Origin: Planctomycetaceae bacterium
GTDB taxonomy: Bacteria > Planctomycetota > Planctomycetia > Pirellulales > UBA1268
Direction of reading: 5' to 3'
DNA: 8,331 bases
Assembly (NCBI GenBank): GCA_947464585.1
Contig: CANHYS010000063.1
Location: forward strand, 1-8,331
In this document: positions 1,961 through 5,211 of the stretch, in pieces
How positions within the stretch are numbered: position 1 is the first letter of the stretch
Layout: each line of letters starts with the position of its first letter
The notes under the pieces: model-generated
What the model was told of the DNA's origin: nothing
Database searches by the model: none
What the model saw: only the letters and a program-made list of their open reading frames with translations
Position numbers and translations under genes: made by a program

Positions 1961-2009
1961 TGTGACGAGTTTTCGCGGCATGTGCCGGCCGCGTTGCATG
2001 CCGATACTA
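1961..2009 (+). promoter_or_regulatory. Bipartite intergenic motif, copy A (probable promoter/operator)
   Basis: The left half, GTGACGAGTTTTCGCGGC, is at 1962-1979. The right half, GCCGATACTA, is at 2000-2009, with 20 bases between. It shares 19 of 20 bases with copy B (1961-1980 versus 3311-3330) and its right half is identical to that of copy C. The spacer forms a perfect 6-bp inverted repeat with the end of the left half (CGCGGC 1974-1979, GCCGCG 1988-1993). The right half resembles a -10 element and ends six bases before ATG 2016, with no Shine-Dalgarno sequence between, so transcription may start at or very near the start codon. The left half is too far upstream for a standard -35 with 17-base spacing, so it may be an activator site or an unusual sigma-factor element. 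Recurrence is seen directly; the promoter role is inferred. Confidence 0.65.
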
Positions 2010-2015
2010 TGAGAT

Positions 2016-3302
2016 ATGGGAAATACTCGACATGCCGCCTGGCGGAACGGAGCAGTCGTCGCCGCCGTGATCGCCTTGTTGACGGGGCTGCCGATCGCGG
2101 CCGTGCGGGCGCGTGGCGAGGAACCCGCCCCGGCTGCGAATCCGGCCGACGTCACTCCCCCGTGGGGCACGTTTCCCAAGCCCGGCGTCGGCATCGAGTT
2201 GGCCGGCGAACTCGTCGTGGTCGATCATGTCAACCGCCGGTTCGGCCTGCGGCTCGACGGCGATTTTAACAAATATCGCTACTTCCAAGACGCAAAACTC
2301 AAGGCCACGCTGCTCCCCTACGGCGAGGTCTGGTACCACGGCGCACCGGCCGATCTGGCCGACATCCCGCTCGGCACGCGGCTCCAGGGCCGCTTCCTCC
2401 TGCCGCCGAAGGACGCCCCGCCGCGGGAGCTCACCTCGGACGGCGAGAAGGCATTTCCGCCTCCGCTGCACGACCGGGCCCTCGTGGTCGAAGACGGCTT
2501 CAGCCACGAACGTCGCCGTGGCCGGGCGTTTCGGATCGACAAGCTCGAGATCAAGCGGGATGACATCAGCTACGGCGACCTGAAGGCCGCGATCGAACGC
2601 GGAGCGATCGTCCTCACGCAGGTGCAGGCATCGGGGCAGCCGCTCGACGGCCCGCCCGACACTCCCAAAGACGCGGCCTACACGGTCGATTTCTCGACGC
2701 GGGTCTGGAAGGATGGGCGGCCGGGGACGCTCGCGGACCTCGCGGTCGGCCAGGTCGTGCAGGCAAACCTCGGCTGGGCGCCCGAGTGGGGAAACCGGCA
2801 GTTTCACTGCCTCGACATCTGGATCGACGAGGCGAGCTGCCAAGTCGCCATCGAGCAGCAGCGGCGGCTGCACCTGCGGCGGATGCGGCACTACTGCCTG
2901 CCGGCCTGGATCGACAAGGTGGAGTACGAGCCGGACGGAAGTGGGCTTATGACGCTGACCTATTTTTCCGGCATGGACAGGCAGCTCTACGATGAAATCC
3001 AGACAAAAGACCCGTATCGGCGGCTCAAACGGGCCGATCAACGCCTGCGGATCATCGGCGGCAGCCAGGGGGACAATGGCGCCGGATCGCACGTGCAGAA
3101 CGTGCACGTCGATCCAGCTCCGCCACCGGGGAGCAGCGGCATCACGCAGGAGGTTCGCGTCGGGTGGGGGAATCACGAAGAGGGATTACGGCCTGGCCGG
3201 TTCATCCGCGTGGCCCAGCGGAACTGGCCCGGTTCGATCCTGCCGCCCGAATGGCTGCTGCCCTTTCCTTACCCGGCCGAGAAGGAAAACCCCCTAGATT
3301 GA
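2016..3302 (+). CDS. Uncharacterised exported protein with repeated beta-rich modules
   Basis: A 428-residue protein that I cannot assign to a named domain. Residues 10-33 look like a Sec signal peptide (AVVAAVIALLTGLPIAA), followed by a low-complexity Pro/Ala linker. A first module at about 60-131 has GELVVVDHVNRRFGLRLDGD, LLPYGEVWYHG and DLADIPLGTRLQGRFLLPP. A second, about 155-255, ends in TLADLAVGQVVQANLGW, which resembles the end of the first. A third C-terminal part (about 265-420) includes a basic stretch (QQRRLHLRRMRHYC) and RPGRFIRVAQRNWPG. The alternating pattern suggests repeated OB- or S1-like barrels, an inference from sequence rhythm only. Cysteines at 265, 275 and 294 could form disulfides. 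The start at ATG 2016 is the first in frame; it has no Shine-Dalgarno sequence and sits just after bipartite motif A. It appears to be a single-gene transcript, since motif B follows its stop by nine bases. Confidence 0.88.
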   Translation: MGNTRHAAWRNGAVVAAVIALLTGLPIAAVRARGEEPAPAANPADVTPPWGTFPKPGVGIELAGELVVVDHVNRRFGLRLDGDFNKYRYFQDAKLKATLLPYGEVWYHGAPADLADIPLGTRLQGRFLLPPKDAPPRELTSDGEKAFPPPLHDRALVVEDGFSHERRRGRAFRIDKLEIKRDDISYGDLKAAIERGAIVLTQVQASGQPLDGPPDTPKDAAYTVDFSTRVWKDGRPGTLADLAVGQVVQANLGWAPEWGNRQFHCLDIWIDEASCQVAIEQQRRLHLRRMRHYCLPAWIDKVEYEPDGSGLMTLTYFSGMDRQLYDEIQTKDPYRRLKRADQRLRIIGGSQGDNGAGSHVQNVHVDPAPPPGSSGITQEVRVGWGNHEEGLRPGRFIRVAQRNWPGSILPPEWLLPFPYPAEKENPLD

Positions 3303-3310
3303 CGCGGGCG

Positions 3311-3354
3311 TGTGACGAGTTTTCGGGGCAGGCCCTCCACGGCTGCCGATGCTA
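3311..3354 (+). promoter_or_regulatory. Bipartite intergenic motif, copy B (probable promoter/operator)
   Basis: The left half, GTGACGAGTTTTCGGGGC, is at 3312-3329. The right half, GCCGATGCTA, is at 3345-3354, with only 15 bases between (20 in copy A, 19 in copy C). It starts nine bases after the stop of the preceding gene. The downstream DUF1559 start is about 107 bases away, so this copy would give a leadered transcript, unlike copies A and C. The GTG at 3312, which opens the longest frame of the DUF1559 gene, is the first codon of this motif and is therefore an unlikely start. Confidence 0.6.
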
Positions 3355-3461
3355 GTCTTGCAAAATGGAAGGTGAGTGGGGGGATTTCACTCCACACCAG
3401 GATTGACTCCCGCACTCGACGTGAGTCATCCATGATCGTTTTCGGCCAAGGGTTTGCAGCC
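3355..3461 (+). other. Probable 5' leader of the DUF1559 gene with short hairpins and a mini-ORF
   Basis: This stretch lies between motif B and the preferred DUF1559 start. It holds GAGTG 3374-3378 with CACTC 3388-3392 (stem extendable by GGT/ACC around a bulge), and TGACTC 3404-3409 with GAGTCA 3423-3428. A second CACTC at 3413-3417 could compete for the first arm. A 13-codon frame (ATG 3365 to TGA 3404-3406, MEGEWGDFTPHQD) begins 11 bases after the motif, in a different frame from the gene, and its stop overlaps the second stem. These may be chance features of a short leader; a regulatory role is speculative. Confidence 0.3.
3448..3452 (+). promoter_or_regulatory. Likely Shine-Dalgarno site for the DUF1559 start
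   Basis: AAGGG lies nine bases before ATG 3462. The alternative ATG 3432 has only a weak purine run upstream and lies four bases from an inverted repeat (3404-3428), so 3462 is preferred. Confidence 0.5.
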
Positions 3462-4671: not shown

Positions 4672-4676
4672 GAGGG
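4672..4676 (+). promoter_or_regulatory. Possible Shine-Dalgarno site for the lipoprotein start
   Basis: GAGGG lies ten bases before ATG 4687. The alternative in-frame ATG 4657 has no comparable site, being only seven bases past the preceding stop. This favours 4687, which also gives a more normal signal-peptide length. Confidence 0.45.
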
Positions 4677-4686
4677 CCATCTATCC

Positions 4687-5118
4687 ATGCGGGGCTTCGC
4701 ACAAAGTGTCGCCGGTGATCTGCGGGCATGGTTCTTGGTTGGGATTTCCGTGGCCGTGGTCGCCGTGGCCGGCTGCGGCCGCAATGGTCTGCACCCCGTG
4801 CGGGGCCGCGTTGTGTTCGCCGACGGCTCGCCTCTTCTGACCGGCCGGGTTGTCGTCAGCTATGGCGACGGCAAGGCGTCTTCGGGCAGCGTCAACCCCG
4901 ACGGCACGTTCAGGGTTGGCACGCTGAAGCAGAGCGACGGGATGCGGGCCGGTACCTACCGCGTGGCGGTCAAGGACGCTTACGTAGAAGTCCAAAAGAA
5001 CGGTGAAACCGTGTCGGAGCCGCTCATTCACAAGCGGTTCGCCGACCCTGCCACCTCCGGCCTGGAGTTCACGGTGCCGGAGAAGACGGTCTGGGAGATC
5101 GTCGTCGAAAAGCCTTGA
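4687..5118 (+). CDS. Small lipoprotein with carboxypeptidase-regulatory-like (beta-sandwich) domain
   Basis: A 143-residue protein. Residues 13-29 form a hydrophobic signal ending in a lipobox-like V-A-G-C, with C30 as the expected lipidated cysteine, so it should be membrane anchored after cleavage. The mature part starts HPVRGRVVFADGSPLLTGRVVVSYGDGKASSGSVNPDGTFRV and continues AGTYRVAVKDAY. This is the pattern of the small Planctomycete proteins with a transthyretin/carboxypeptidase-regulatory-like fold that are often encoded directly after DUF1559 genes. The frame can be extended to ATG 4657, but GAGGG upstream favours 4687. There is no copy of the bipartite motif between it and the DUF1559 gene, so the two are probably co-transcribed. 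The likely role is a cell-envelope accessory or binding protein for the pilin-like partner; this is inference from neighbourhood only. Confidence 0.85.
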   Translation: MRGFAQSVAGDLRAWFLVGISVAVVAVAGCGRNGLHPVRGRVVFADGSPLLTGRVVVSYGDGKASSGSVNPDGTFRVGTLKQSDGMRAGTYRVAVKDAYVEVQKNGETVSEPLIHKRFADPATSGLEFTVPEKTVWEIVVEKP

Positions 5119-5148
5119 ATCGGTGTTGATCGCCACGATTCGGTGTTG
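5113..5148 (+). repeat. Imperfect direct repeat, 20-base period
   Basis: GAATCGGTGTTG (5117-5128) and GATTCGGTGTTG (5137-5148) match at 11 of 12 bases, and each is preceded by CC two bases further out. The period is 20 bases, about two helical turns. The first copy overlaps the lipoprotein stop codon; the second ends 16 bases before bipartite motif C. It could be a paired binding site for a regulator of the downstream operon, or a small local duplication. Confidence 0.5.
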
Positions 5149-5164
5149 GTTTGTGCAGGCCGAC

Positions 5165-5211
5165 GTGACGTCTTTTCGCGGCGTGCAATCGCCGTCGTTT
5201 GGCCGATACTA
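5165..5211 (+). promoter_or_regulatory. Bipartite intergenic motif, copy C (probable promoter/operator)
   Basis: The left half, GTGACGTCTTTTCGCGGC, is at 5165-5182. The right half, GCCGATACTA, is at 5202-5211, with 19 bases between. The left region matches copy A at 16 of 20 bases and the right half is identical. As in copy A, the end of the left half and the spacer form an inverted repeat (CGGCG 5179-5183, CGCCG 5190-5194). The right half ends five bases before ATG 5217 with no Shine-Dalgarno sequence, consistent with a leaderless transcript for the cytochrome/DUF1552 operon. The promoter role is inferred from recurrence and position. Confidence 0.65.

What the first reader, a model, noticed from the sequence alone, without database searches (positions are those of the whole stretch)
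1961..5211. Three copies of one bipartite intergenic motif define a probable shared regulon
The motif GTGACGWSTTTTCGSGGC, then 15-20 bases, then GCCGATRCTA, occurs at 1962-2009, 3312-3354 and 5165-5211. It lies in each larger intergenic gap and not in the short gaps inside operons (609-631, 4650-4686, 7689-7696). Copies A and B share 19 of 20 bases over the left half, and the right half is identical in A and C. The flanking genes are unrelated, so this conservation is not explained by gene duplication. It matches no sigma-70 promoter spacing I can fit, and I do not recognise it as a described element. It could be the promoter of an alternative sigma factor or the operator of a global regulator in this lineage.
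Basis: partly seen in the sequence, partly recalled or inferred. Interest (0 to 1): 0.8.

Follow-up and report, generated by a model that had tools for sequence, protein, structure and literature searches.

The report
Shared switch site before cytochrome-like genes
The repeated DNA motif is most likely the docking site of a sensor-controlled regulator that switches on one cluster of planctomycete cytochrome-like genes whose function is unknown; it is a local gene switch, not a genome-wide one.

Summary
The three copies are real and where stated. The window's own genome is not held. In the one close relative found (G001, a planctomycete MAG), 10 copies lie on one strand in one cluster of PSCyt/DUF1552 genes; 15 other two-mismatch hits are scattered (6 in the control). 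So this is a local, not a global, regulon. Block 1 is a degenerate dyad (TGNNACG-N6-CGTNNCA). Block 2 is a -10-like hexamer, usually 21-23 bases downstream. At copies A and C it ends 6-7 bases before an ATG with no visible Shine-Dalgarno sequence, so these genes may be leaderless. Beside the G001 cluster sits a two-component system (HisKA_3 kinase, NarL/LuxR-type regulator). Two further genomes, one from another order, carry the same pair beside the same gene types, each with the dyad in a divergent promoter gap. Of 8 strict dyads in these three genomes, 3 are at these clusters and 5 lie inside coding genes. Best reading: operator of a cluster-linked NarL-family regulator, probably an activator. 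Binding is not shown, and the regulator genes lie outside the window. The listings and passages I saw do not describe this operator.

The parts
1961..1980 (+). Copy A, block 1: dyad operator TGTGACG-AGTTTT-CGCGGCA
   Evidence: dyad register
2003..2008 (+). Copy A, block 2: -10-like hexamer GATACT (TACTAT, two bases later, is an equally good match)
2016..3302 (+). Gene led by copy A: 428-aa protein of no Pfam family ('p3'); ATG begins 7 bases after the hexamer, no visible Shine-Dalgarno (possible leaderless start)
3311..3330 (+). Copy B, block 1
3348..3353 (+). Copy B, block 2: GATGCT, 18 bases after block 1 (outlier spacing)
3432..4649 (+). DUF1559/SBP_bac_10 protein with N-terminal methylation motif, downstream of copy B (start uncertain)
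4687..5118 (+). Small protein, no Pfam family, likely same transcript as the DUF1559 gene
5164..5183 (+). Copy C, block 1
5205..5210 (+). Copy C, block 2: -10-like GATACT
5217..7688 (+). Gene led by copy C: PSCyt1/PSD3/PSD5/PSD4/PSCyt3/PSD2 protein; ATG 6 bases after the hexamer, no visible Shine-Dalgarno
7697..8331 (+). DUF1552 (HXXSHH) gene, likely same transcript as the PSCyt gene, cut by window end; has a Shine-Dalgarno-like GAGGTG
3..608 (+). C-terminal part of an upstream PSCyt3/PSD2 protein (cut by window start)
632..1951 (+). DUF1552 protein, next gene of the upstream unit

Best explanation
Block 1 is the operator of a dimeric NarL/LuxR-family response regulator, with inverted half-sites TGNNACG and CGTNNCA around six bases. 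The regulator is controlled by a HisKA_3 sensor kinase encoded beside the cluster in relatives. Block 2 is the -10 element of each promoter. The bound dimer, centred about 43-46 bases before the start codons of A and C, would replace the missing -35 contact and activate the transcription units of this PSCyt/DUF1552/p3/DUF1559 cluster together. At copies A and C, and at their G001 orthologues, transcription would start at or within a base or two of the ATG, giving leaderless mRNAs. Shown by sequence: the copies, their clustering in G001, the dyad, the -10 spacing, and the dyad-regulator-cluster association in three genomes. Inferred: that this regulator binds, that it activates, that the mRNAs are leaderless, and that the window's own genome carries the regulator.
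For: G001: 10 copies (8 with at most one mismatch, 2 with two), all on +, on contigs C16 and C169. G001 C16 has a Response_reg+GerE protein at 24448-25098 and, next to it, a HisKA_3/HATPase_c kinase whose likely start (27071) is about 200 bases from the first copy. G045 has the same pair (63% and 53% identical) beside homologous genes, with TGTGACGCGATCGCGTGGCA between divergent DUF1552 genes. Prediction test: G568, from another order and found only through its kinase, has regulator and kinase (58%, 50%) divergent from a PSCyt-DUF1552-p3 operon, with TGTGACGGATTGTCGTGGCA between kinase and operon. Strict TGNNACG-N6-CGTNNCA sites: 8 in G001, G045 and G568 together; 3 at these clusters, 5 of 5 others in coding genes. 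Dyad complementarity peaks at the block 1 centre, 0.57 against 0.09-0.41 at other centres bar one. A -10-like hexamer starts 21-23 bases after block 1 at 7 of 10 positions and on both sides of the G045 site. The GerE recognition helix is nearly invariant in the three regulators. The window's flanks of A, B and C have no match better than E 0.16 in the G045 and G568 stretches, so the shared core is not copied flank.
Against: No binding or expression data exist. The window's own genome is not held and the regulator is not in the window. The dyad is weak in most G001 and window copies (3-5 of 7 arm pairs), and another centre (offset 13) scores 0.51. By number alone the strict dyad is not enriched in these genomes (G001 3, G045 2, G568 3 sites against 5, 2 and 11 for the reversed control); only its places speak for it. 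A looser dyad pattern with one mismatch gives 9 hits outside the cluster in G001 and 6 in G045 against 1 control hit each; of these 15, the C46 hit and the 14 checked later all lie inside ORFs. Copy B and G001 copies 43141 and 43525 do not keep the 21-23 spacing; at 27278 the hexamer matches TATAAT at only 3 of 6. The G568 hexamer is poor (CACTAT, 3 of 6), and the kinase side there has no hexamer at that distance. The strict pattern was settled after seeing G001 and G045, so only G568 is a blind test. G006 repeats G045 with 100% identity over 731 bases and is not independent. G033 has homologous genes without this kinase.
Confidence: 0.72

Rival explanations
1. An operator, but for a different regulator that is not encoded beside the cluster (for example a one-component repressor); the two-component system is there for other reasons.
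For: Dyad and promoter position fit any dimeric regulator. None of the 7 window proteins scanned has a regulator domain in Pfam. The sense of regulation is unknown.
Against: The dyad recurs at the kinase/regulator locus in three genomes, one from another order; recognition helix conserved.
Confidence: 0.13
2. The copies are only paralogous promoter segments, copied together with genes or by local recombination, read by the ordinary sigma factor with no dedicated regulator.
For: In G001 the segment at 43137-43258 is 85% identical to 44380-44509, and pieces of genes occur next to copies 27278 and 43141, so local duplication did happen.
Against: The copies lie upstream of unrelated genes in the window, and the core recurs in G568 and G045, where the window's flanks find no match better than E 0.16.
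Confidence: 0.07
3. A recombination or mobile-element site (integron attC-like or MITE-like direct repeats) that seeds insertions between genes.
For: All 10 G001 copies point one way and cluster; a UPF0175/DUF3368 gene pair (toxin-antitoxin-like, recalled) lies between copies in G001, and an 11-kb difference between window and G001 ends at copy A.
Against: Most copies have a -10-like hexamer at a set distance; no integron core site was seen on reading the blocks; in the G045 and G568 cluster stretches the strict dyad occurs once, in a divergent promoter gap.
Confidence: 0.04
4. Promoter of an alternative (for example ECF) sigma factor, the two blocks being -35 and -10.
For: Two conserved blocks upstream of genes in the gene's orientation.
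Against: Block 1 is 18-20 bases long and dyadic, the block-to-hexamer distance is 21-23 with outliers at 16-19, and the G045 site is palindromic and lies in a divergent gap.
Confidence: 0.03
5. A structured RNA leader element.
For: Copy A can fold into a hairpin between the blocks; bases between the blocks vary.
Against: The three copies give unlike minimum-energy folds, and the predicted transcription start lies downstream of both blocks.
Confidence: 0.01

Closest known systems
UvrY/SirA/GacA (NarL/FixJ-family response regulator) 18-bp inverted repeat TGTAAG-N6-CTTACA
   Same: Inverted half-sites of the TGTRA type around a 6-base centre, bound by a two-component response regulator (PMC4682653, passages read; that UvrY is a NarL/FixJ-family regulator is recalled)
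   Different: Here the half-sites are TGTGACG/CGTGGCA (7-6-7), the site abuts the promoter (centre about 43-46 bases before the start) instead of lying far upstream, and the targets found are one local gene cluster
NarL and VraR response regulators
   Same: The linked regulator's best solved relatives by sequence are VraR (5hev, E 9e-26) and NarL (1a04, E 2e-22); the kinase has HisKA_3/HATPase_c
   Different: Among the 25 of 88 NCBIfam matches shown, none reaches its cut-off (best 107.6 bits against 300); the sensor region has a weak F5/8 type C-like match below Pfam's cut-off
Planctomycete-specific PSCyt/PSD gene clusters
   Same: PSCyt and PSD domains combined in one protein, with a gene of another family next to it (PMC5615132, passages read)
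   Different: [quoted passage not shown] the passages I read name no regulator or operator for them

Membership tests
NarL/FixJ-family response-regulator operator | Dyad-symmetric site of about 16-20 bp | tested here: met
   Complementarity peak at block 1 centre; near-perfect in G045 (11 of 13 pairs), degenerate in most other copies
NarL/FixJ-family response-regulator operator | Linked regulator with receiver and GerE domains | tested here: met
   Domains found in G001; homologues by tblastn in G045 and G568, aligned over both domains; not testable in the window's own genome, which is not held
NarL/FixJ-family response-regulator operator | Sites outside plausible target promoters only as coding background | tested here: met
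   3 of 8 strict sites at the clusters, 5 of 5 others within coding genes; 14 of 14 looser hits checked in G001 and G045 within codon-biased ORFs
NarL/FixJ-family response-regulator operator | Phosphorylation-dependent binding by the regulator | not testable with these tools
   Needs a binding assay
sigma-70 promoter | -10 hexamer close to TATAAT | tested here: inconclusive
   GATACT 4 of 6 at A and C; GATAAT 5 of 6 at G001 A; CATAAT 5 of 6 in G045; B and G568 only 3 of 6
sigma-70 promoter | -35 TTGACA-like hexamer about 17 bases before -10 | tested here: not met
   None seen on reading A, B and C (by eye, no scan run); consistent with activator dependence
ECF sigma promoter | Short asymmetric -35 and -10 blocks at fixed 16-17 base spacing (recalled) | tested here: not met
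   Block 1 dyadic and 18-20 bases long; distance to hexamer 16-23
integron attC site | Core sites RYYYAAC and GTTRRRY (recalled) near an integrase | tested here: not met
   Core sites not seen on reading the blocks; an integrase was not searched for

The most novel reading that the evidence does not exclude
A dedicated two-component switch (HisKA_3 kinase with a weakly F5/8 type C-like sensor region plus a NarL-type regulator) with operator TGTGACG-N6-CGTGGCA is an ancient control unit for PSCyt/DUF1552/p3 clusters across planctomycete orders and perhaps Verrucomicrobia, and in this lineage it drives leaderless mRNAs. It would give a first handle on when and why these genes of unknown function are expressed.
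Probability: 0.35. Interest if true: 0.65.

Novelty: new member of a known kind. Interest (0 to 1): 0.5.

Why it matters
[quoted passage not shown] A predicted operator and its linked sensor kinase make their regulation testable: the inducing signal, the set of co-regulated genes, and which paralogues work together. The predicted activator-dependent, leaderless promoter layout is also a concrete hypothesis for a phylum in which I saw no mapped leaderless starts in the listings and passages of my searches.

Tried and rejected
Global regulon: rejected. In G001, 15 of 25 two-mismatch hits lie outside the cluster (10 without one five-copy repeat) against 6 control hits, and no other family genome has more than 3 left-block hits at one mismatch.

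Co-occurrence of GTGACGAGTTTTCGARGC with distant kinases in G067, G069, G070 and G071: rejected; all four hits lie inside the same coding gene.

Dyads elsewhere: the exact looser-pattern hit in G001 C46 is inside an ORF; 14 of 14 one-mismatch hits checked in G001 (8) and G045 (6) are inside codon-biased ORFs; the hits in G006 and G033 were not checked. The G045 C186 strict dyad is inside a csrA gene (PF02599). IMG/VR hit L139 is inside an ORF of a viral contig. The Sulfitobacter (L001) and Chthonomonas (L002) hits were taken as chance: by my own estimate, from no call, about one was expected. I printed only 201 bases of L002 and did not look at L001.

RNA structure: the three copies fold differently. 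Direct repeats in the G033 and G045 stretches: no family resembling the motif among those listed (20 of 30, 20 of 52 and 20 of 24 families shown). Kinase in IMG/VR: none. Fold of p3: confident model (mean pLDDT 86), no PDB match at E <= 0.001. A first triple test with 7-base seeds missed B versus C and was redone without seeds.

Literature: ten searches. In the listings, and in the passages read from four papers, I saw no description of this operator, of a regulator of PSCyt clusters, or of mapped leaderless starts in planctomycetes; most listed papers were not opened. PMC5397173 (passages) infers leaderless and/or RPS1 initiation for the phylum from sequence bias. PMC5615132, PMC6461901 and PMC4682653: passages. 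PMC2754498: search listing only.
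Full report
OBSERVATION. Block 1 (GTGACGNNTTTTCGNGGC) is exact at 1962-1979, 3312-3329 and 5165-5182 and absent elsewhere in the window with up to 3 mismatches. Block 2 (GCCGATRCTA) is exact at 2000-2009, 3345-3354 and 5202-5211. A seed-free search for three same-strand 18-mers agreeing pairwise at 15 or more positions finds only this triple, and 1 of 60 Markov shuffles yields any. 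The window alone is therefore suggestive; the relatives decide.

GENES. All seven window proteins scanned lie on +: the end of a PSCyt3/PSD2 protein and a DUF1552 protein (3-608, 632-1951); a 428-aa protein without a Pfam family, called p3 here (2016-3302); a DUF1559 protein and a small protein (3432-4649, 4687-5118); and a PSCyt1...PSD2 protein followed by a second DUF1552 protein (5217-7688, 7697-end). Copies A, B and C precede p3, the DUF1559 gene and the second PSCyt gene.

WHERE ELSE. The window's own genome is not held. One scan of genome contigs with the bipartite pattern gave three stretches. I take only L003 as an orthologue, from a MAG titled 'Planctomycetaceae bacterium isolate RE-18aug17-209' (4.1 Mb, handle G001). 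In G001, block 1 with up to 2 mismatches gives 25 hits against 6 control hits. Ten are in one region, all on +: C16 27278, 29017, 29076, 33347, 43141, 43525 and 44384, and C169 813, 2669 and 6737. The 15 others are scattered, and five of them are one identical repeat on five contigs. Contigs C16 and C169 are taken to adjoin because the window spans the orthologous junction; their ends overlap at 91%, not 100%, so this is inference. The exact bipartite motif is in 1 of 72 family genomes. Block 1 with at most one mismatch occurs 8 times in G001 and at most 3 times in any of the other 71. It is a local element.

THE NEIGHBOURING REGULATOR. Next to the first copy in G001, on the other strand, lie a kinase (HisKA_3, HATPase_c, weak F5/8 type C match) and a response regulator (receiver plus GerE). 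The same pair (63% and 53% identical) adjoins a homologous PSCyt/DUF1552/p3 cluster in G045. Between two divergent DUF1552 genes there lies TGTGACGCGATCGCGTGGCATG, a near-perfect palindrome. G006 has the same DNA (100% over 731 bases) and is not counted as independent. In the family, 9 of 72 genomes have a kinase match at E <= 1e-30, but only G001 and G045 a close one; the other seven are 26-34% identical. At E <= 1e-80 there are 2 of 396 genomes in an order-level sample (G001, G045) and 2 of 392 in a phylum-level sample (G001 and a new one, G568). G568 belongs to another order: its order search lists 23 genomes and G001 is not among them.

PREDICTION TEST. The dyad read from G001 and G045, TGNNACG-N6-CGTNNCA, was searched in whole genomes. 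G568 has 3 such sites in 5.2 Mb. One, TGTGACGGATTGTCGTGGCA, lies between the kinase and a divergent PSCyt-DUF1552-p3 operon; by length alone the chance of a site falling in that gap of about 320 bases is about 2e-4. Across G001, G045 and G568 there are 8 strict sites: 3 are at these clusters and 5 of 5 others are inside coding genes. By number the dyad is not enriched (reversed control 5, 2 and 11 against 3, 2 and 3); its places are the evidence. A looser pattern with one mismatch gives more hits than its control outside the cluster (9 in G001, 6 in G045, control 1 each), and all 15 of these lie inside ORFs. The G001 and G045 results are not blind, because the pattern was settled on them. The recognition helix of the three regulators is nearly invariant, and the window's flanks find no match better than E 0.16 in the G045 and G568 stretches.

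ANATOMY. Complementarity of arm positions, averaged over 10 copies, is 0.57 at the centre of block 1 and 0.09-0.41 at the other centres tried, bar one of 0.51. Most copies have 3-5 of 7 arm pairs; G045 has 11 of 13 pairs overall. A -10-like hexamer starts 21-23 bases after block 1 at 7 of 10 positions (A, C, D = C169:6737, 27278, 29017, 29076, 33347); at 27278 it matches TATAAT at only 3 of 6. In G045 it does so on both sides of the palindrome (CATAAT at 23, TATGGT at 22). B (18), 43141 (16) and 43525 (19) depart from this, and the hexamer in G568 is weak. At A and C the hexamer ends 7 and 6 bases before an ATG with no visible Shine-Dalgarno sequence, whereas the genes at 632 and 7697 have GGAGG or GAGGTG. 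This is what a leaderless first gene would look like. In G045 the DUF1552 gene read on + has a leader and GGAGG, so leaderlessness is not general.

MECHANISM. I propose that the kinase senses a ligand outside the cytoplasm and phosphorylates the NarL-type regulator, whose dimer binds block 1 and recruits RNA polymerase to a promoter lacking a -35 element, raising the units of the cluster together. The copies, their clustering, the dyad, the spacing and the association are shown by sequence. Binding, activation, ligand, leaderless starts and the presence of the pair in the window's own genome are inferred. Repression is not excluded.

EVOLUTION. Window 1-1942 aligns to C16 31335-33264 (94%) and window 1959-2673 to C16 44381-45112 (86%), so about 11 kb present in G001 is missing in the window and the join abuts copy A. 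G001 also holds gene remnants beside copies 27278 and 43141 and a UPF0175/DUF3368 gene pair between copies. Local duplication and turnover may have helped to spread the promoter segment, but they do not explain the recurrence of the core in G568.

COMPARISON. The nearest described operator I could read about is the UvrY/SirA inverted repeat TGTAAG-N6-CTTACA (PMC4682653, passages): a regulator of the same family (recalled) and the same 6-base centre, but different half-sites and a far-upstream position. The regulator's best solved relatives are VraR and NarL. PSCyt gene function is stated to be unknown in PMC5615132 (passages). In ten literature searches I saw no description of this operator; I saw listings, and passages of four papers.

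VERDICT. It is a local regulon element, most likely the operator of a cluster-linked NarL-family two-component regulator: a new member of a known kind, of interest because it gives a test for genes of unknown function.

Noticed in passing
window 1942-1959; C16 33264 and 44381 in G001: About 11 kb of G001 (second p3 and PSCyt genes, a Pfam lactonase, and by my reading a dehydratase, a permease and a UPF0175/DUF3368 pair) is missing in the window; the join abuts motif copy A.
   Followed up: partly
L032:7278-7600 and L033:2970-3600 (G001 C16 27278-27600 and 42970-43600): Remnants of p3 and of the small protein follow copy 27278, and a stretch 79% identical over 150 bases to part of the kinase gene lies by copy 43141.
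   Followed up: partly
window 2016-3302: p3 has no Pfam or NCBIfam match and 139 homologues at E <= 1e-20 among the 8000 candidates scored. A confident AlphaFold model (mean pLDDT 86) has no PDB match at E <= 0.001. It recurs near DUF1552 and PSCyt genes.
   Followed up: partly
P0050 and relatives: Kinases about 50% identical over nearly full length occur in Verrucomicrobia (Luteolibacter sp. SL250), so the kinase may be shared by two phyla.
   Followed up: no
G001 C3:78985, C15:32768, C19:23284, C74:7824, C197:718: An identical repeat, GTGTCGTTTTTTCTTGGC, occurs five times on five contigs.
   Followed up: no
twelve family genomes: GTGACGGCTTTTCGCAGC occurs once in each of 12 of 72 genomes, perhaps inside one conserved gene.
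   Followed up: no
window 3303-3431: Copy B differs from the rest: hexamer 18 bases after block 1 and a longer, uncertain leader before the DUF1559 gene.
   Followed up: partly
L113 and L116 (G066, G065): More distant kinase/regulator pairs (25-40% identical) lie close to DUF1559 matches, with no PSCyt/DUF1552 match in the stretches fetched.
   Followed up: no
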